Shown here one piece after another: positions 38,581-47,899 of a stretch of DNA of 64,000 nt. The stretch comes from Pseudomonadales bacterium (GTDB lineage: Bacteria > Pseudomonadota > Gammaproteobacteria > Pseudomonadales > JAHRWD01): positions 1 to 64,000 of the forward strand of contig JAESUM010000003.1 in assembly GCA_016763075.1 (NCBI GenBank). Direction: 5' to 3'. The notes beneath the pieces were generated by a model that saw only the letters and a program-made list of their open reading frames with translations, had not been told where the DNA came from and did not search any database. Positions within the stretch are counted from its first letter, which is position 1. Every line of letters starts with the position of its first letter. The position numbers were made by a program, and so were the translations under genes.

Positions 38581-39972
38581 ATGAGTAGCATGGAAGCGAT
38601 CGACTTTGAAAGTGTCCAAGATGACGAGCAAGCAGATGCCTTGCCCCAAGCTCATCAACCTCTTCGTATTGCGTTACTAGGCTACCGAAGCAAACCATTT
38701 TGCGGCGGTCAGGGAATCTATATACAGTTCCTCAGCACCGCGCTCTGCGATTACGGCCATCAGGTCGATGTAATATCGGGCCCGCCATACCCCAATCTTG
38801 ACCCGCGGGTTCGGCTGATAAAAATCCCCAGCCTTGAACTGTTTGAACAATTTAATTGGATTCCTCGCACATCCCCCAAAAATTTGCTCGACTCAACCAA
38901 TCGCTTTGAATACGTAAGCAAACTTACCGGCGGCTTTCCAGAACCCGAAACCTTTGGCCGGCGCGTTGTTCAATACTTCAGAGACAACGGCTGCCAATAC
39001 GACATTGTGCACGACAACCAAAGTCTCTGTTACGGACTACTTGAACTACAAAATATGGGCGTGCCATTGGTCACCACCATTCATCACCCCATTACCCGCG
39101 ACCGTAGAATCGAGCTAAAAAGCGCCACAGGCCCTTGGGCTCGGTTACTCGTAAGGCGCTGGCATAACTTCTTAAGCATGCAGCAAAAAGTGGTCAATAA
39201 GCTAAACCACGTGGTGACAGTATCGGAGCATTCCAGAAAAGATATCTCAGATGATTTCAACCGCTCTGAACAACGTATCGATTTGGTGTATAACGGCATC
39301 GATACCAAGCAGTTCAAACCCATCAAAGGTATTGAACGCAAACCCTTTCGGCTTATGGCCATGGCCAGCGCCGATGTCCCGTTAAAAGGGCTCGAATTCC
39401 TGCTAGGTGCCTTGGCAATATTGCAAAAAGATTACCCAGAGCTAGACCTGTTGCTGGTTGGCCAGCCCAAACCCGGCGGGCCCACTGAAAAGCTGATCAA
39501 CAAACTCGGCATTGCCGACAAAATCCAATTCGTCAGTGGCATTAGCACCGAGCAATTAGTGCAGTATTACGTCGAAGCCACCATTGCCGTTACCGCCTCA
39601 CTTTACGAAGGTTTTGGGCTGCCCATTGGCGAAGCCATGGCCTGCGGCGTTCCGGTAGTTTCCTCCGATGGTGGCGCACTGCCAGAAGTCGTTGGTGATG
39701 CTGGCCTGGTTGTACCTTGCGGCGATGCCCAAGCATTAGCAACCGCCATTGGCCGGCTGCTAGATAACCCGTTGCTAAGAATTAAACTTGGCGAAAAAGG
39801 CCGTCAACGGATTCTCGAAACTTTTAGTTGGACAGTAGCTGCGGGCGAAATGACCCACCTATACCAACGCGTTTTGAACCCCAGCAAGCTTGAAGCAGCC
39901 AACACCAAAATCGCCCCCATCGCCGAGCAAGCCATAGAATCCGACGAAGTAGCCCTCGCATGCAAACCTTAG
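38581..39972 (+). CDS. Family 4 glycosyltransferase
   Basis: LRIALLGYRSKPFCGGQGIYIQFLSTAL, HDNQSLCYGLLELQNMGVPLVTTIHHPITRDRRIELKSA, SLYEGFGLPIGEAMACGVPVVSSDGGALPEVVGDAG. Confidence 0.93.
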   Translation: MSSMEAIDFESVQDDEQADALPQAHQPLRIALLGYRSKPFCGGQGIYIQFLSTALCDYGHQVDVISGPPYPNLDPRVRLIKIPSLELFEQFNWIPRTSPKNLLDSTNRFEYVSKLTGGFPEPETFGRRVVQYFRDNGCQYDIVHDNQSLCYGLLELQNMGVPLVTTIHHPITRDRRIELKSATGPWARLLVRRWHNFLSMQQKVVNKLNHVVTVSEHSRKDISDDFNRSEQRIDLVYNGIDTKQFKPIKGIERKPFRLMAMASADVPLKGLEFLLGALAILQKDYPELDLLLVGQPKPGGPTEKLINKLGIADKIQFVSGISTEQLVQYYVEATIAVTASLYEGFGLPIGEAMACGVPVVSSDGGALPEVVGDAGLVVPCGDAQALATAIGRLLDNPLLRIKLGEKGRQRILETFSWTVAAGEMTHLYQRVLNPSKLEAANTKIAPIAEQAIESDEVALACKP

Positions 39973-40673
39973 ACCTCGACCGAATCTGTTTTGAAGACAC
40001 CGAACGAGTGCTCGACGTAGGCTGCGGTGAAGGGCGACTGAGTTTACACACCTATTCCCACGCCAACGTACAGGCAGTTGGGGTAGATATGTGCTTAGAA
40101 GATCTACAAACCGCCCAGTCCCGATTTGCTGAATTCGACGAAAAAAGCACCGAAAAACAGTTTAGCCTTAGCCAAACTGATGCCTACCGACTACCTTTCC
40201 CTGACCACTGCTTTGATAAAGTATTCTGCTCTGAAGTGCTCGAACACTTACACGAATACCCCAAAGCGCTGGCAGAAATTGAGCGCGTGTTAAAGCCCGG
40301 CGGCGTGTTTGTTGCTAGTGTGCCACGCTGGTGGCCAGAAAAAATCTGCTGGTGGCTCAGCGCTGCTTACCACGAAGTAGAAGGTGGCCACGTACGCATT
40401 TTCAAAGAACAAGAGCTGCAATCAGCCATCGAAGAGTTTGGCTTCACCCGCTTCGATAAACACTGGGCGCACTCGCTGCACTCACCCTATTGGTGGCTAC
40501 GGTGTATGTTTTGGAAAAACCAAGAAGAAAACTGGGCGGTTAAGTTGTACCACCGTTTTTTAGTCTGGGATTTGATGGCACAGCCGGCGCTAACAAAAAT
40601 CCTTGATACCCTGCTCAACCCAATCATGGGTAAAAGTGTGGTGCTGTATTTCCGAAAAGGGCTAAAACCTTGA
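39960..40673 (+). CDS. Class I SAM-dependent methyltransferase
   Basis: RVLDVGCGEGRLSLHTYSH, FDKVFCSEVLEHLHEYPKALAEIERVLKPGG; overlaps the GT gene by 13 nt. Confidence 0.92.
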   Translation: MQTLDLDRICFEDTERVLDVGCGEGRLSLHTYSHANVQAVGVDMCLEDLQTAQSRFAEFDEKSTEKQFSLSQTDAYRLPFPDHCFDKVFCSEVLEHLHEYPKALAEIERVLKPGGVFVASVPRWWPEKICWWLSAAYHEVEGGHVRIFKEQELQSAIEEFGFTRFDKHWAHSLHSPYWWLRCMFWKNQEENWAVKLYHRFLVWDLMAQPALTKILDTLLNPIMGKSVVLYFRKGLKP

Positions 40674-41704
40674 GCAAGATCCGTCTTGCGAAGGGTGATA
40701 ATCCCCTCGACTATTTTCAACCCTCCGTAGACTTCATCCTCAAAACCCAATGTTCCGACGGCTCCATTCCCTGGTTTACCGGCGGTCATTTAGACCCCTG
40801 GGATCACGCCGAAGCCGCAATGGGTTTGAGCATTGCAGGGCGTTACGAAGAAGCTATCGCAGCCTATAAATGGTCTGCCGACAATCAACTAAAAACCGGC
40901 GCATGGTGGGCTAAATATGTAGATGGCCAGCCGGTAATGGACGACGAAGCCCGCTACGAAACCAATTTTATCGCCTACATTGCCACCGGTGTCTGGCACC
41001 ATTATTTGATCACCGCAGACCGCGCATTCCTCGAACAAATGTGGCCCTGCGTAGAACCTGCAATTAATTACGTACTGTCACTTCAAGCAGCCAATGGCAC
41101 CATTACCTGGGCCATCGACCACAAAGGCATTGCCAAACCCGATGCACTCGTCACCGGTTGTAGCTCTGTCTACAAAAGTATCGAATGCGCCGTCAATATC
41201 GCCTTCGCGCTCGGGCAAGCTAAACCTGACTGGGCCACCGGAAGAGCTGCATTAGGCGATGCAATGCTTCATCACCCAGAACGTTTCGACCAAAGCAAAG
41301 CCCGATACTCAATGGACTGGTTCTATCCAATTCTCACCGGTGTCTATCAAGGGCAACGAGCTAGCGAACATATCACCAAACACTGGGATACCTTCATCAA
41401 ACAAGATATGGGCTGCCTGTGTGTGTCCGATGAACCCTGGGTAACCGTTGCTGAATCCTGCGAGCTAACCATGGCGTTAATCGCCACAGGAAAACGCGAT
41501 GCAGCAGTAGAACTGTTCAGCTGGCTGCATCAGTTTAGAAGTGAAGACGGTGTTCACTGGACTGGCTATCAATATGATCTAGACCTTTTGTGGCCCAACG
41601 AACAACCCACCTGGACAGCCGGAGCCGTACTGCTCGCAGCAGATGCGCTTTGCGATGCCACACCTGCTTCAAAGATATTTACTGAAGTGAATTTGCTGGG
41701 TTAG
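40670..41704 (+). CDS. Prenyltransferase/terpene-cyclase-like alpha/alpha-barrel protein, function unknown
   Basis: QCSDGSIPWFTGGHLDPWDHAEAAMGLSIAGRYEEA, ETNFIAYIATGVWHHYL, MDWFYPILTGVYQG; TTG start overlapping the upstream TGA by 4 nt. Confidence 0.75.
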   Translation: MSKIRLAKGDNPLDYFQPSVDFILKTQCSDGSIPWFTGGHLDPWDHAEAAMGLSIAGRYEEAIAAYKWSADNQLKTGAWWAKYVDGQPVMDDEARYETNFIAYIATGVWHHYLITADRAFLEQMWPCVEPAINYVLSLQAANGTITWAIDHKGIAKPDALVTGCSSVYKSIECAVNIAFALGQAKPDWATGRAALGDAMLHHPERFDQSKARYSMDWFYPILTGVYQGQRASEHITKHWDTFIKQDMGCLCVSDEPWVTVAESCELTMALIATGKRDAAVELFSWLHQFRSEDGVHWTGYQYDLDLLWPNEQPTWTAGAVLLAADALCDATPASKIFTEVNLLG

Positions 41705-41733
41705 CTCTATTGGCATGATTTGAGAACGACCTG

Positions 41734-41937
41734 TTACTGCCATTGCAGGTCGCGGTGAGATTGTGCACAGTCACAAAGATATAAACTGATAAGGCTCTGA
41801 TACGGAATTCCTTTCTCCTCAGCCATCACTTTAACGTACGCGATAGTATCCTCATCTAAACGAATCGTAATTTTCTTCTTCAGCTTCTGAGCGTACGGGT
41901 TAGGAGTAGACTTCGAAAAATCGTAATTTTTACGCAT
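41734..41937 (-). CDS. CopG/BrnA-like ribbon-helix-helix antitoxin
   Basis: MRKNYDFSKSTPNPYAQKLKKKITIRLDEDTIAYVKVMAEEKGIPYQSLISLYLCDCA; ATG at 41937. Confidence 0.75.
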   Translation of the reverse strand: MRKNYDFSKSTPNPYAQKLKKKITIRLDEDTIAYVKVMAEEKGIPYQSLISLYLCDCAQSHRDLQWQ

Positions 41938-42010
41938 AACGGAATTCCTCATAAGTAATACGTTCCTGCTTGTCGACTTTTCGCGGATGCTCTCTGTGAT
42001 ACCAATATAA
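41930..42010 (-). pseudogene. Possible C-terminal remnant of a BrnT-like toxin
   Basis: Frame LYWYHREHPRKVDKQERITYEEFRYA* ends in TATGCGTAA, overlapping the antitoxin ATG as in brnTA operons; stop upstream, no intact toxin. Confidence 0.4.
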
Positions 42011-42176
42011 TTATGCCCTGCCTGTAGCCTGTTCAATATTCAGAATCGAGAACTATTGCACCACTTTGAAAGGTCGATAGCCTGTCAGAGAAAGAAAAAA
42101 ACTTGGTAAGTTAACCGCTTATTGAAAGTTCGCTTTCAATCTCTAACCACTGTGAATACTACTAGAGAACATCCCC

Positions 42177-42371
42177 ATGCCATTAAACGCGAAAGAAGAT
42201 GCCACGCGCCAGATCGACCATTTGCCCGATCAGGCCACATTGAATGACATTATGTACGAACTTTATGTAAAGCAAAAAATTGAAGGGGGAATTAAGGCGA
42301 TAGAGGAAGGCCGCACCGTTCCCCATGATCAAATCAAGGCACGTATCATGGCGCGACATAAATCACCATGA
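42177..42371 (+). CDS. Addiction-module antitoxin-like small protein
   Basis: TRQIDHLPDQATLNDIMYELYVKQKIEGGIKAIEEGRTVPHDQIKARIMARHKSP; followed by a RelE/ParE-like frame with ATGA overlap. Confidence 0.75.
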   Translation: MPLNAKEDATRQIDHLPDQATLNDIMYELYVKQKIEGGIKAIEEGRTVPHDQIKARIMARHKSP

Positions 42372-42676
42372 TCATCGAATGAGCAGAACCTTCTGAACTG
42401 GATTTGGGTGATATTTATGCCTATATCGCCCGCGATGTACCTTTCTATGCCGAACAATCTATTGATCAGATTATCGAGTCAACCAACCTCCTTACCGATC
42501 AGCCATTGATGGGGCGTGAAGTACCAGAAGCTGAACGCAAGGATATACGAGAGTTACTTTTTCAGAATTACCGCATTATCTATCTGATAAAAACTGACTA
42601 TCTTTACATTGTCGCAGTGATTCGCGGTAGTCGGGATTTAACCAGAATGGAACATAAACCCTGGGAGATTATTTAA
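42368..42676 (+). pseudogene. RelE/ParE-superfamily toxin interrupted by in-frame TGA at codon 5
   Basis: ATG ATC ATC GAA TGA GCA GAA CCT: MIIE*AEPSELDLGDIYAYIARDVPFYAEQSIDQII...RIIYLIKTDYLYIVAVIRGSRDL; the TGA sits where Trp is typical. Confidence 0.8.
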
Positions 42677-42826
42677 CCAGCTGTTGATATTCGCTTTCGC
42701 TGAATCGAACCAGGTGCAAGGCAAAACCAGGCGGTCAACGCGGTTGGATCAAGAAACTCAGGACATCAATCGATGCGTGCCCCTTTTGCTGTTGTCGCGG
42801 TTCAAACTTGATACTAAGTTCGTTAA

Positions 42827-42916
42827 CTATTGTGTCCCCATAATGACTTCCTCAGCGATTTCTTCAAAGTAACCAATAGTATCTTCATCTGATTTAACCC
42901 AATATGGGGGCAAAAT
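42827..42916 (-). pseudogene. Truncated second CopG/BrnA-like antitoxin fragment
   Basis: FYARAILPPYWVKSDEDTIGYFEEIAEEVIMGTQ* aligns without gaps to YAQKLKKKITIRLDEDTIAYVKVMAEE of the 41.7-kb antitoxin. Confidence 0.5.
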
Positions 42917-42952
42917 GGCTCTCGCATAAAAACCCCTTAATAAGGCACCGCT

Positions 42953-43870
42953 ATGGCATCCCAACCTGACAAAACCACTTCAGCTGCTCGGACCGCAACC
43001 CGTCAGATACGACCGACGGCGGCAAAAAACGGCGGTACTTTTCGGGTTCACACCAAAGGCCTAAGCAGTTCGTTAATAAATGATTTTTATTACCGAGTAA
43101 TGCTCGCCACCTGGCCACAGTTTTTTATCTCCGCAATTCTGGTTTACCTGTGTATTAACGCAGGCTTTGCGCTGGTCTATTTTCTGGGCGGCGACATGAT
43201 CATCAACGCCCGCCCCAACTCGTTTATCGACGCGTATATCTTCAGCTTTCAAACCAGCACCACCATCGGTTACGGCTCTTTACTGCCCCAAAACGGCATC
43301 GCCCACGCCGTTGTGATGGTCGATGTGTTCTCCGGTTTACTATTTGTCGCGGTGCTAACCGGGCTGGTATTTGCACGTCTTGCAAAACCGCGAGCCAGCG
43401 TACTGTTTGGCAATCAGGTTGTGATAGCCCAGCACTGCGGCCAACCCGCACTGCTGATGCGCCTGGCCAATGGCCGCAAACGATCCTCCATCGTTAACTG
43501 CAAAGTAAGTGCCGTATTGTTGATGGAAGACCGCGACCCAGAGAGTATTTTCGAGCGCCGCTTTATCGATATTAAACTGGAGCGCGACAACATCCCCATC
43601 TTCTCCCTGACCTGGACATTGGTACACACTATTGACGAACATAGCCCGCTCTACGGCCTTGATAAAGCAGCCATCGAAAGCTACGCCACTATGCTAATTA
43701 TCACCCTCGATGGTATTGAAGATATTTTTGCCCAGACCGTACACACCAACCACTTTTACGAAGCCAAAGATTTTATCTTCAATAAGTGCTTTGCCAGTAT
43801 TTTCAGCCAACATAAAGATGGTAGTCGCATGATTGATTACACACGATTTCACGATCTGGAAGATCTGTGA
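42953..43870 (+). CDS. Inward-rectifier potassium channel (KirBac-like)
   Basis: Selectivity filter FQTSTTIGYGSLLP, second TM helix FSGLLFVAVLTGLVFARLAKPRA, Ig-like domain IVNCKVSAVLLM...RRFIDIKLERDNIPIFSLTWTLVHTID. Confidence 0.92.
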   Translation: MASQPDKTTSAARTATRQIRPTAAKNGGTFRVHTKGLSSSLINDFYYRVMLATWPQFFISAILVYLCINAGFALVYFLGGDMIINARPNSFIDAYIFSFQTSTTIGYGSLLPQNGIAHAVVMVDVFSGLLFVAVLTGLVFARLAKPRASVLFGNQVVIAQHCGQPALLMRLANGRKRSSIVNCKVSAVLLMEDRDPESIFERRFIDIKLERDNIPIFSLTWTLVHTIDEHSPLYGLDKAAIESYATMLIITLDGIEDIFAQTVHTNHFYEAKDFIFNKCFASIFSQHKDGSRMIDYTRFHDLEDL

Positions 43871-43909
43871 TCCAACATCTATCGCGAAATTTTTTACTGA
43901 AGCAAGTAA

Positions 43910-43934
43910 GTTGGGCAGAAGCATGAAGCCCAAC
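43910..43934. repeat. REP-like hairpin
   Basis: GTTGGGC-agaagcatgaa-GCCCAAC. Confidence 0.6.
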
Positions 43935-43958
43935 GGGGCAAGATCGATTAAACATTTT

Positions 43959-43986
43959 TGGGCTTCGCAGGCTCAGTCCAAGCTAC
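43959..43986. repeat. Degenerate REP-like element (inverted orientation)
   Basis: Reverse complement GTAGCTTGGACTGAGCCTGCGAAGCCCA resembles GTAGGTCGGGCAGAGCTTGCGAAGCCCAACCTAC at 44838. Confidence 0.5.
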
Positions 43987-44080
43987 GAGCTGGTTGCTAT
44001 TTGGTAGGAGGCAAGCGCTTCTTCGTTAAACTTAAACTTATTTTGAATTTTTATAGGCTTTACTAAAAAATAAGCATTCG

Positions 44081-44748
44081 CTAATGCAAAGCCTCTTGCT
44101 GCTCAGCGGGTGTAAGCTCACTGTATTTCTTAGCACCCATCTCTTCTACAAAGAATTCTCTGAGTAGTTTTATATCGTTTGTCATAGCATCTCCGTGGAT
44201 CTTATCTTTGATTAATTTATTCATATAATCGAGAACTGTTTCCGGAGTTCCATTTTTTCCTGTGTTGCTTATCTCATTGAGATTAATCATAACGCTTAGG
44301 TCTTCTGGCGGTAAATCTTCTATAAACAACTGCTCAAAAAGAGATTTACTTGCACGCCTATCGAAGGCATATTTCATATAGTTTTTTTCAACACCATACT
44401 TATCTTTACAGGTCATTTTATGACGGTTGCGATTGAGGAATTGCAGCATTTGGGTGCCGCTGGGGTTGTTGATTCCGTGGTGTTTTAACATATGCTTTCC
44501 TATCCACTTTTTTGTATTTTTAGCAACATCGAGTCCAGAGAAAGTGAAAATAAAACAAATTTTTCTAGCAAGAGATCTCATACTTGAACTATTGTCGTGG
44601 GTGTAACGTTTCTCTATAGAAGAAGACTGTGCTCCAACTGTATTGGCCGCCAAGGTTATGCAGGCTGGGCAATTGTTGCTGTCTTGGAGCCGGCATAAAG
44701 TGCGCTTCTGTTGACTAAAACAAACAATACCCATAAAAACTTTCTCAT
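44081..44748 (-). pseudogene. Uncharacterised exported protein, apparently split by a one-base deletion after the signal peptide
   Basis: AAGGAC-ATG at 44748 encodes MRKFLWVLFVLVNRSALYAGSK, then TAA after 30 codons. The long ORF (44081..44734) continues DSNNCPACITLAANTVGAQ... in the neighbouring frame. Confidence 0.5.
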
Positions 44749-44790
44749 TATTTTGTCCTTTGTTTATTTCCGGTTTTTATTTTTTAAACA

Positions 44791-45414
44791 TTACGTGTTG
44801 TAATTTACCGCGTATTTTATAGGGCGGCGTGTAGCGTGTAGGTCGGGCAGAGCTTGCGAAGCCCAACCTACCGGTTCGCCAAATATTTCGAGTTCGGATT
44901 CTTGATAGAAATTACCCCAGTTTTCATCCAACCAACCGTGTTCTATATATTGGTGAATGGTTGAATATTGCCCATCAACCGCGTTTTTTACATGCCCGTG
45001 TTTAACCCGGTTGTAATGAATGTAATCAATATGTTTTGCAGAATCGTTTTCATCACGAATCAAATGTTCCCAATATCGTCTTTACCAAATACCGCGTTCT
45101 CGTTTTGTTTTTCGGCTATCGCTTATAGGTTCCAGCTTAGGTAGTTGGCGAGAAAACCCAGATTTAATCAACATCCAACGGTTTACAAAATCATGATCGT
45201 TTTGTGGCAAGGTGAAAAGCGCGTGTATATGCTCGGGTAGTATTACCATTGCATCGAGCTTGAAAGGGTCGCGTTTTTTTACTTTGTTGATGCTTACAGG
45301 CAGCCGATTTATTTCATCAACCAATAACATGCTGCTTCTATCCGCAAGATTAATGGTAAAAAAATAGCTTGCTCCTTTTATATAAGTGCGTAAATCGGCA
45401 CGCCGGTATTTCAT
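44791..45414 (-). pseudogene. REP-associated tyrosine transposase (RAYT / IS200-like Y1), interrupted by in-frame TAA
   Basis: ORFs 45082..45414 and 44791..45063 are in the same frame, joined as ...KRERGIW-[TAA]-RRYWEHLIRDENDSAKHIDYIHYNRVKHGHV; HIH motif ILPEHIHALF. Confidence 0.85.
44838..44871. repeat. REP-like hairpin at the transposase 3' end
   Basis: GTAGGTCGGGC-agagcttgcgaa-GCCCAACCTAC. Confidence 0.7.
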
Positions 45415-45432
45415 CGGTTTTGGTAAAACCCT

Positions 45433-46050
45433 TTAACCAACCCTCTCAAGAACCGCCAGGGTATTTACCATCGCCAGCTCACGAAATAACCCGGAAGCTA
45501 ACGCCAGTTTATAAATATCATAAGGTGCCTGGCCGCCTTTGGTTGGGTCGGGGAAGATATCGTGAATGGCCAAAATCCCACCGGGTAAAATATGCCCTGC
45601 CCAGCTTCTGTAGTCTGTCATGGCGGCTTCGATGCTGTGACCGCCATCAATAAAGACCATCGCTAATGGAATGCTCCAAAATTTGGCGGCAATACCAGAG
45701 CTGGTTACTAACGGCACCACTACATCTTCAAGGCCTGCTGCTTTCATGTTTTTGCGGAACTCGCGGAAGCTATCGAGGCATTCGGCCCCAGCATCGTAAA
45801 GATCAGCATCGTGGTATTCCTCGCCTAGCTGGTGCTCTTCTGAACCACGATGGTGGTCTAGTGCATACAGTAACGAGTCATTTTCCTGGCAGCCGGCACC
45901 AAAATAGAGGGTAGATTTTCCGCAGTAGCTGCCTACTTCAAGGCATGGCCCGAGGGTGGAAACTTTTTTGGCATATTCGTAAAGGGCTGCGCCTTCATCG
46001 TTGGCTAGAAAGCCTTTTACTGAATTTGGGTCAACTTTTAAAGATGGCAT
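45433..46050 (-). CDS. Class I SAM-dependent methyltransferase
   Basis: GPCLEVGSYCGKSTLYFGAG, MVFIDGGHSIEAAMTDYRSWAGHILPGGILAIHDIF. Confidence 0.85.
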   Translation of the reverse strand: MPSLKVDPNSVKGFLANDEGAALYEYAKKVSTLGPCLEVGSYCGKSTLYFGAGCQENDSLLYALDHHRGSEEHQLGEEYHDADLYDAGAECLDSFREFRKNMKAAGLEDVVVPLVTSSGIAAKFWSIPLAMVFIDGGHSIEAAMTDYRSWAGHILPGGILAIHDIFPDPTKGGQAPYDIYKLALASGLFRELAMVNTLAVLERVG

Positions 46051-46164
46051 AATCTACTTCCTGTTTGATTTTAATACGGCGAGCGGTTTGGTTTATTTGA
46101 GCGGCAGTTGCCGTTGCTTGGCTACTGCTGTTCAACTGCTTTTTTAACTATTTTTTAACTACAG

Positions 46165-46848
46165 CTACAGCTCTTCAATATTGATATATTTTGCTATTTC
46201 TACTTTGTTGGGGTCTGTTAAGTGCGGTACAACGCCAATGCAGGGTTCTGGAATTTGGCGTTTTAGGGTCTCTAAATTCTCCTCAAAACACGACATTTGC
46301 GCATCTACCCGGTTGGCGACCCAACCAAACACTTTTAGCCCGTCGTTACGGATGGCTTCTAAACTTAACATGGCGTGGTTAATACAGCCTAGGCGCATAC
46401 TTACCACCAATATCACCGGTAAGTTTAACATTTTAGCCACATCTGCAAAGGTTTCGGTACGGTTAATGGGTACTCGCCAGCCCCCTGCTCCTTCCACTAA
46501 TGTGATGTCTGACTCCAGGTTTATGATTTTTTCGCAGTGCTGCGTAAGCTGCGGCGCGCTAACTTCAAGGCCCACTTGTTCTGCTGCTATATGGGGTGCA
46601 ATGGCAGGTTCAAGCGCAAACGGGTTTACCTGCGAATAGGGCAAAGAGATGGTCATTGCGTCTATCAATTCAAGGGCATCTTCATTTTTGAAGCCATCTG
46701 GAGTTAGCTCACAGCCTGCGGCCATGGGTTTGACTGCAGCGCTGCTGAGGCCGTGCTGGCGGGCGTATTCGAGGATACCGCAGGCGATGCGGGTTTTGCC
46801 AACGTCGGTATCGGTACCGCTTACGAAAAACTTAATGGGGGCATTCAA
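46165..46848 (-). CDS. bioD: Dethiobiotin synthetase
   Basis: FFVSGTDTDVGKTRIACGILEYA, LVEGAGGWRVPIN. Confidence 0.95.
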   Translation of the reverse strand: MNAPIKFFVSGTDTDVGKTRIACGILEYARQHGLSSAAVKPMAAGCELTPDGFKNEDALELIDAMTISLPYSQVNPFALEPAIAPHIAAEQVGLEVSAPQLTQHCEKIINLESDITLVEGAGGWRVPINRTETFADVAKMLNLPVILVVSMRLGCINHAMLSLEAIRNDGLKVFGWVANRVDAQMSCFEENLETLKRQIPEPCIGVVPHLTDPNKVEIAKYINIEEL

Positions 46849-47062: not shown

Positions 47063-47899
47063 TTAGGAGTGCTTCACTGCAATACCGTAATACACTTCGT
47101 AGGTAGCGGGCAAAACACCGTCGCTCCGGCGAAATTGTTCATAATTTTCAATCAGTTGTTTAACCCGGTTTTTGCCGGTCAGCCCGCTGGATTGCTGCTG
47201 GTTCATATTGTGAGCGCCGAGTTTTTTTAGCTCTTTGGTGAGCTGGTTTAAACGCTGATATTCAAGCACGATGTCGTGGCTGGTGAGGTTTGTTGACTCA
47301 AACGACTGCATTGCAAGTAATTGCTGTACCGCTGCAAAGGGCATAAATTCATTTACATGAACGTGCTGGTCTATTGGTTTCCAGGCTTGTTTTAGCTCAT
47401 ACAAAGTACGTGGGCCTAGTGTTGAAAAGGCCAGTATGCCGCCGGGTTTAAGTACGCGTTTGGCCTCGGCAAAAAAAGCTTCGAGATCTGCACACCACTG
47501 CACCACCAAACTTGAATAGACCAAATCAAAACTGTTATCTGCAAATGGGATGTTTTCTACGTCTGTTTGGGCCCAGTAGGTGCGACTTTTATCTGACTTG
47601 GCGGTTTTATTTGCAGCAAATTTGAGCATACCCTCGGCCAAGTCTACGGCGTACATTTGTGCAGGATTGTAGTGGCGGGTAAGCTGGCGAGTGAAGTAGC
47701 CGGTGCCGCAGCCTGCATCTAAAATGGTGTTGGCGGTAAAGCCTTTGGGTATTGTTACTTGCAAATGGTTGCCCACTTGTTGCTGCAGTTGCGCAACGGA
47801 GTCGTAACTCGCGGCGCAGCGGCTAAACGACGCTGCAATGCGCGATTTATCTACCGCTGCGGGAATGTATGGGTCTGCCATTTGGCCTAAGCTGCTCAT
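47063..47899 (-). CDS. bioC: Malonyl-ACP O-methyltransferase
   Basis: ILDAGCGTGYFTRQL, FDLVYSSLVVQWC, EAKRVLKPGGILAFSTLGP. Confidence 0.95.
   Translation of the reverse strand: MSSLGQMADPYIPAAVDKSRIAASFSRCAASYDSVAQLQQQVGNHLQVTIPKGFTANTILDAGCGTGYFTRQLTRHYNPAQMYAVDLAEGMLKFAANKTAKSDKSRTYWAQTDVENIPFADNSFDLVYSSLVVQWCADLEAFFAEAKRVLKPGGILAFSTLGPRTLYELKQAWKPIDQHVHVNEFMPFAAVQQLLAMQSFESTNLTSHDIVLEYQRLNQLTKELKKLGAHNMNQQQSSGLTGKNRVKQLIENYEQFRRSDGVLPATYEVYYGIAVKHS

What the first reader, a model, noticed from the sequence alone, without database searches (positions are those of the whole stretch)
38581..41704. Overlapping GT4 / methyltransferase / alpha-barrel cassette: candidate undescribed glycoconjugate pathway
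Seen: three co-directional genes with 13-nt and 4-nt overlaps, so almost certainly one translationally coupled unit. The third protein has Trp/His/Asp-rich repeats (IPWFTGGHLDPWDHAEAAM, ATGVWHHYL, MDWFYPILTGVY), which suggests an alpha/alpha barrel binding a polyisoprenoid or sugar rather than a true prenyltransferase. From memory, all three resemble a conserved gene set in actinobacteria annotated 'glycosyltransferase family 4 / class I SAM / prenyltransferase' with no assigned function. Its presence here beside core genes would imply horizontal spread of an intact module. Inference: it makes a methylated glycolipid or small glycoconjugate.
Basis: partly seen in the sequence, partly recalled or inferred. 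Interest (0 to 1): 0.75.

Follow-up and report, generated by a model that had tools for sequence, protein, structure and literature searches.

The report
Methylmannose polysaccharide pathway in Gammaproteobacteria
These genes are the Gram-negative version of a sugar-polymer pathway worked out in mycobacteria: a mannose-adding enzyme, two methyl-adding enzymes and a polymer-cutting enzyme that recycles old chains into primers for new ones; they occur in about a third of sampled genomes of this order of Gammaproteobacteria, although the polymer itself has, as far as I could find, only been reported from Actinobacteria.

Summary
In detail: three overlapping genes lie exactly at the stated coordinates. 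The pathway, however, is already characterised. Gene 1 is an orthologue of ManT, the alpha-(1->4)-mannosyltransferase (PDB 7QSG, E 1e-109). Gene 3 is an orthologue of MmpH, the methylmannose-polysaccharide (MMP) endomannosidase (7QSJ, E 3e-93; model TM 0.92, 1.5 A). Gene 2 sits where the putative 3-O-methyltransferase (pMeT3) sits in the mycobacterial MMP cluster. It is normally convergent with mmpH and is displaced here by about 3.7 kb of toxin-antitoxin and other inserts. All tested catalytic residues are conserved. The order manT>meT3>mmpH><meT1 is conserved in most of 80 related loci and in an actinobacterium. Across 295 genomes of the order, MmpH and MeT1 co-occur almost perfectly (97, 97, both 96). 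The genome can make GDP-mannose and lacks the FAS-I domain searched. Best reading: an intact cytosolic MMP-type pathway with the "cut, prime, re-extend" mechanism, long resident in this order rather than recently acquired. New member of a known kind in an apparently unreported phylum. The product has not been demonstrated.

The parts
38581..39972 (+). manT: GT4 retaining alpha-(1->4)-mannosyltransferase orthologue (GDP-mannose donor inferred)
   Evidence: phmmer 7QSG E 1.1e-109, 47% identity to M. hassiacum ManT over 402 columns; K269/E343/E351 (= Mh K240/E313/E321) invariant in 78 sequences
39960..40673 (+). meT3: class I SAM methyltransferase in the place of mycobacterial pMeT3 (putative mannose 3-O-methyltransferase)
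   Evidence: PF08241 E 1.5e-23; 42% identical over its length to the methyltransferase between manT and mmpH in Nonomuraea; model pLDDT 90, nearest folds AtmM/RebM sugar O-methyltransferases
40670..41704 (+). mmpH: (alpha/alpha)6-barrel MMP endo-alpha-(1->4)-mannosidase orthologue
   Evidence: phmmer 7QSJ E 3.3e-93; D42, D45, E262, W315 etc. conserved; AlphaFold model TM 0.92, rmsd 1.5 A to 7QSJ
   Evidence: phmmer 6G7D/6G80/6H40 E 8.1e-53; 50% identical to the convergent MeT1-like gene of Nonomuraea; co-occurs with mmpH in 96 genomes
41705..45432 (.). inserted stretch between the normally convergent mmpH and meT1 (not part of the pathway): CopG/BrnA antitoxin, ParE toxin, Kir-type channel, ORFs without a known family
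   Evidence: in most relatives the mmpH-meT1 gap is -60 to +122 nt

Best explanation
The locus encodes a complete MMP-type pathway. ManT adds mannose from GDP-mannose, in alpha-(1->4) linkage, to short methylated oligomannoside primers. MeT3 methylates the 3-OH of the added residues. MeT1 caps the reducing end with a 1-O-methyl group. MmpH cuts finished chains internally into shorter oligomannosides that prime new chains ('partially conservative replication'). The product is a cytosolic methylmannan that probably buffers long-chain acyl thioesters or helps in the cold. SHOWN here: orthology of ManT, MmpH and MeT1 to structurally solved enzymes, conserved catalytic residues of ManT and MmpH, conserved gene order, genome-wide co-occurrence of MmpH and MeT1, a GDP-mannose synthesis gene, and absence of the searched FAS-I domain. 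INFERRED: substrate specificity and linkage, the 3-O position for MeT3, the product itself, and its physiological role.
For: ManT, MmpH and MeT1 hit the three solved MMP enzymes as best PDB hits at E 1e-109, 3e-93 and 8e-53, with a wide gap to the next family. MmpH catalytic and cleft residues D47, W49, D50, N101, F102, T163, M215, Y219, E262, E265 and W315 are all present in the window protein and near-invariant in 104 homologues; ManT K240/E313/E321 are invariant in 78. The MmpH model fits 7QSJ at TM 0.92, 1.5 A. Gene order manT-meT3-mmpH><meT1 is the same in Gammaproteobacteria, two genomes of another class, and Nonomuraea. MmpH and MeT1 co-occur in 96 genomes of 295 where each is in 97; the exceptions are a genome 70% complete and a MeT1 match at a contig edge; this holds even where MeT1 is unlinked by about 37-63 kb (genus g293). 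A ManT orthologue is present in all 11 relatives (of 17) with MmpH and in none of the 6 without. GMP_PMI (GDP-mannose synthesis) is in the genome, 704 bits. The mechanism itself is from PMC9883506.
Against: No product has been measured in any proteobacterium that I could find. Identity to the mycobacterial enzymes is only about 46%. The 3-O activity of pMeT3 was unproven even in mycobacteria in the 2023 paper. I had no mycobacterial pMeT3 sequence, so gene 2 is tied to it through Nonomuraea and gene position. The module often lies beside LPS genes (waaA, lpxL, hldE, rml), which leaves room for an envelope role.
Confidence: 0.84

Rival explanations
1. The four enzymes build or trim a methylated mannan that is attached to the envelope (an LPS or capsule component), not a free cytosolic polymer.
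For: The module sits next to waaA, hldE, rmlABCD or lpxL in many loci, including 0.9-1.3 Mb genomes. PMC9883506 cites a 3-O-methylmannose homopolymer as O-antigen in Oligotropha carboxidovorans.
Against: No further gene travels with the four across the loci, so no transporter, ligase or flippase does. A 1-O-methyltransferase that blocks the reducing end is incompatible with lipid anchoring through that end, and MeT1 co-occurs with MmpH in all but 2 of 98 genomes that have either. None of the proteins begins with an evident signal peptide (read from the sequence). In the window the trio itself is not flanked by envelope-glycan genes.
Confidence: 0.1
2. Same enzymology but a different polymer: another sugar, linkage, methyl position or chain length than mycobacterial MMP (Streptomyces makes an acetylated variant).
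For: About 46% identity only. ManT positions next to the catalytic E313 differ (Mh S316/A319/V320 versus G/I/G in the window). The methyl position of MeT3 is untested.
Against: MmpH cleft residues and ManT catalytic residues are conserved, and ManT, MmpH and MeT1 were all specific for MMP or its pieces in mycobacteria (PMC9883506).
Confidence: 0.15
3. An undescribed pathway for a methylated glycolipid with a polyisoprenoid-binding barrel (a strong form of the first reader's idea).
For: The barrel has a weak fold resemblance to terpene cyclases (drimenyl diphosphate synthase, TM 0.53-0.55).
Against: The best fold match by far is MmpH (TM 0.92, E 1e-34), with glycoside hydrolases and phosphorylases next; catalytic Asp/Glu conserved; the pathway is characterised.
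Confidence: 0.02
4. A decayed or non-functional copy here, broken up by inserts between mmpH and meT1.
For: About 3.7 kb of toxin-antitoxin and other ORFs separates mmpH from meT1.
Against: All four frames are open and full length, catalytic residues are intact, meT1 is 94% identical at protein level to its genus-mate, and lineages with meT1 far away still keep it.
Confidence: 0.03

Closest known systems
Mycobacterial MMP gene cluster (meT1-mmpH-pmeT3-manT; M. hassiacum MHAS_04405-04402)
   Same: All four enzymes present; same relative order manT-meT3-mmpH; same catalytic residues; same fold for MmpH
   Different: Host is a gammaproteobacterium lacking the searched FAS-I domain; meT1 is convergent and here displaced by inserts; about 46% identity; product not demonstrated
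Nonomuraea gerenzanensis locus L099 (Actinomycetota)
   Same: manT>meT3>mmpH then convergent meT1, as in Gammaproteobacteria
   Different: A DUF1702 gene lies between mmpH and meT1; a GDP-mannose 4,6-dehydratase-like gene lies upstream of manT
6-O-methylglucose lipopolysaccharide (MGLP) pathway of mycobacteria
   Same: Cytosolic polymethylated polysaccharide concept (PMC9883506, PMC2674218)
   Different: Glucose polymer made by other enzymes; its genes were not looked for here
GH15/GH125-type (alpha/alpha)6 barrel hydrolases
   Same: Barrel fold and inverting catalysis as discussed for MmpH
   Different: Low identity; MmpH is endo-acting and lacks their -1 subsite Arg/Asp pair (PMC9883506)

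Membership tests
MMP biosynthetic module | ManT orthologue, GT4, with K240/E313/E321 | tested here: met
   E 1e-109 to 7QSG; residues invariant
MMP biosynthetic module | MmpH orthologue with D47, D50, E262 and conserved cleft | tested here: met
   E 3e-93 to 7QSJ; D42/D45/E262/W315 in the window; TM 0.92
MMP biosynthetic module | MeT1 orthologue (1-O-methyltransferase) | tested here: met
   window 45433-46050(-), E 8e-53 to 6G7D; genome-wide co-occurrence
MMP biosynthetic module | pMeT3 orthologue | tested here: inconclusive
   42% identical to the Nonomuraea methyltransferase in the same position; no mycobacterial pMeT3 sequence was available for direct comparison
MMP biosynthetic module | Gene clustering and order | tested here: met
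   manT-meT3-mmpH in 76 of 80 loci (the other 4 cut by contig ends); meT1 on the opposite strand to mmpH within the fetched stretch in 65 of 80
MMP biosynthetic module | GDP-mannose supply | tested here: met
   GMP_PMI TIGR01479, 704 bits, G000:C49
MMP biosynthetic module | MMP (alpha-1,4, 3-O-methyl, 1-O-methyl-capped mannan) produced | not testable with these tools
   needs extraction, MS and NMR
MMP biosynthetic module | Host with FAS-I (setting of the original FAS-I regulation hypothesis; from my own knowledge; a correlate of known hosts, not a definition of the pathway) | tested here: not met
   PF08354 absent in G000; the control genome C. glutamicum rings
Prenyltransferase / squalene cyclase-like (alternatives for gene 3) | Sequence or fold closer to a terpene cyclase or prenyltransferase than to glycosidases | tested here: not met
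   no Pfam hit; terpene-cyclase-like matches TM 0.53-0.55 against 0.92 for MmpH

The most novel reading that the evidence does not exclude
A functional methylmannan system, thought to be actinobacterial, is an old and widespread trait of Gammaproteobacteria (kept even in genomes of 0.9-1.3 Mb). It would work there without FAS-I, so the polymer's true role would be something other than regulating FAS-I, for example cold adaptation or acyl-chain/membrane handling, and the actinobacterial system would be only one branch of a proteobacterial-actinobacterial family.
Probability: 0.5. Interest if true: 0.68.

Novelty: new member of a known kind. Interest (0 to 1): 0.52.

Why it matters
Polymethylated polysaccharides have been tied to mycobacterial physiology (fatty-acid metabolism, acyl-CoA sequestration, cold growth), and their function is unsettled. 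Finding the full enzyme set in Gram-negative bacteria without the searched FAS-I domain would separate the role of the polymer from mycobacterial lipid biology and give new hosts in which to delete the genes. It would also offer a set of diverse ManT and MmpH sequences for alpha-(1->4)-mannan enzymology, a linkage described as extremely rare. It would further give a function to a protein family that has no Pfam entry.

Tried and rejected
Novel glycolipid pathway: rejected, because three of the four genes match solved MMP enzymes. Mobile or viral carriage: no match in phages or viral contigs; the only plasmid-collection hit is an 11.85 Mb Nonomuraea replicon that looks like a chromosome. Recent transfer from Actinobacteria: the tree puts the window with its order, and actinobacterial sequences next to two genomes of another proteobacterial class with unstarred support (82/81 and 91/86), so the direction of any ancient transfer is unresolved. 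An attempt to sample actinobacterial genomes through a named locus was not possible, and the 2019 MeT1 paper is not held. Literature searches for proteobacterial MMP found nothing in the held library, which is not proof of absence. Promoter and terminator scans around the trio were at or below chance. The Fisher p of 3e-76 for co-occurrence ignores relatedness and is not used as a probability.

Full report
Observation. Pfam calls gene 1 a GT4 and gene 2 a class I methyltransferase; gene 3 has no Pfam family.

Identity. Against all PDB sequences, gene 3 has one strong hit: 7QSJ, MmpH of Mycolicibacterium hassiacum, E 3e-93. Gene 1 hits 7QSG, E 1e-109, with the next family at 6e-28. The PDB title of 7QSG is 'D-inositol 3-phosphate glycosyltransferase'; that this entry is ManT rests on its place beside 7QSJ and on the match of residue numbering to the paper (one offset fits K240, E313 and E321). 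PMC9883506 describes both enzymes: ManT is an alpha-(1->4)-mannosyltransferase using GDP-mannose and MmpH an endo-alpha-(1->4)-mannosidase; together with MeT1 and a putative 3-O-methyltransferase (pMeT3) they make the 3-O-methylmannose polysaccharide. In M. hassiacum the locus tags run manT 04402, pmeT3 04403, mmpH 04404, meT1 04405. The trio here has the same order, manT-MT-mmpH.

The fourth gene. The Nonomuraea locus L099 shows manT>MT>mmpH followed by a convergent methyltransferase. Its homologue in the window is 45433-46050(-), annotated only as Methyltransf_24 by Pfam. It hits 6G7D/6G80/6H40 with E 8e-53 and is 50% identical to the Nonomuraea protein. The PDB title of 6G7D is only 'Methyltransferase domain protein'; that these entries are MeT1 is from my own knowledge of the 2019 MeT1 work, which is not held in the library. 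In most gammaproteobacterial relatives meT1 lies within about 120 nt of mmpH; in this window 3.7 kb of inserts intervene, and 2.6 kb of different inserts in the genus-mate.

Residues and fold. MmpH D47, D50, E262, W315 and eight of the nine other tested active-site positions correspond to identical residues in the window protein (T46 is Leu) and these are near-invariant in 104 homologues; ManT K240, E313 and E321 are invariant in 78. The AlphaFold model of gene 3 (pLDDT 91) superposes on 7QSJ with TM 0.92 and 1.5 A. The model of gene 2 (pLDDT 90) is closest to the sugar O-methyltransferases AtmM and RebM; this is general and does not fix the methyl position.

Distribution. Patterns from gene 3 brought 251 relatives in genome contigs; the 80 kept are nearly all named as Gammaproteobacteria, many Halieaceae and Spongiibacteraceae. 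In 76 of 80 the trio is complete and the other 4 are cut by contig ends; 65 of 80 have meT1 on the opposite strand in the fetched stretch. Among 295 genomes of the same order MmpH is in 97 and MeT1 (E below 1e-15) in 97, both in 96 (my count over the lists). Genus g293 has meT1 roughly 37-63 kb away wherever both are on one contig, but keeps it, so the association is not only linkage. ManT orthologues follow MmpH presence and absence in all 17 relatives examined. Outside the order the module is sparse: 10 of 369 genomes of the class and 6 of 399 of the phylum (both counts include the window's own genome and one weak match). It includes two genomes of another class (G925, G926) with all four genes. 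Gammaproteobacterial genomes of 0.9, 1.2 and 1.3 Mb keep all four genes beside a phosphomannomutase/phosphoglucomutase gene, a class IV aminotransferase and waaA.

Supply and setting. The genome has a mannose-1-phosphate guanylyltransferase/mannose-6-phosphate isomerase. The FAS-I model PF08354 finds nothing in it, while the control C. glutamicum rings. One domain model is a limited test of FAS-I.

Descent. Trees of the four concatenated proteins put the window with its genus-mate and within its order. Actinobacterial sequences fall beside the two other-class genomes, but support is not starred and the tree is unrooted, so the direction of any ancient transfer is open. In many Halieaceae, waaA and tolC follow meT1; in the window waaA and tolC lie about 10 kb upstream of the trio, which fits long residence and later rearrangement better than a recent arrival, though this is only suggestive.

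Mechanism. By orthology, MmpH cuts finished chains, ManT extends the pieces with GDP-mannose, MeT3 methylates O-3 and MeT1 caps O-1. Shown: homologues, residues, order, co-occurrence. Inferred: all activities in this organism, the identity of the polymer, its role. The 1-O cap argues for a free polymer rather than a lipid-linked one. LPS genes nearby keep the envelope rival alive at about 0.1.

Novelty. The pathway kind is known. Its presence in Gammaproteobacteria was not found in the held literature, but that library lacks most subscription papers, and the homologues are easy to find by a sequence search, so others may have noticed. I file it as a new member of a known kind.

Noticed in passing
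window 41734-42036 (-), 42177-42371 (+), 42404-42676 (+): CopG/BrnA-type antitoxin and a ParE toxin with a small ORF upstream, inserted in the mmpH-meT1 gap.
   Followed up: partly
L009 6845-7150 and 7908-8213: The genus-mate carries a roughly 307-bp, 89% identical direct duplication of the 3' end of mmpH and downstream DNA, flanking a BrnT toxin gene, in the same gap; the same spot holds different toxin-antitoxin genes in the two genomes.
   Followed up: partly
window 42953-43870 (+): Prokaryotic inward-rectifier (Kir-type) potassium channel homologue between mmpH and meT1 (PF17655, PF07885).
   Followed up: no
window 44081-44734 (-) and 45082-45414 (-): ORFs without a Pfam family; the second looks by eye like a fragment of a REP-associated transposase.
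   Followed up: no
window 45433-46848 (-): meT1 lies 114 nt downstream of a bioD-like gene (PF13500) on the same strand, with a bioC-like methyltransferase next (47063-47899), so it may be co-transcribed with biotin genes in this genus.
   Followed up: partly
L136, L137, L138: Gammaproteobacterial genomes of 0.9-1.3 Mb retain all four genes beside PGM/PMM, aminotransferase class IV, lpxL-like and waaA genes.
   Followed up: partly
L135 628-2787: A mannose-1-phosphate guanylyltransferase domain fused to an N-acylglucosamine 2-epimerase-type domain, about 4 kb from the module in a genome of another class.
   Followed up: no
L099 (NZ_LT559118.1): An 11.85 Mb record is filed as 'plasmid I' of Nonomuraea gerenzanensis in PLSDB; by size it is presumably the chromosome.
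   Followed up: no
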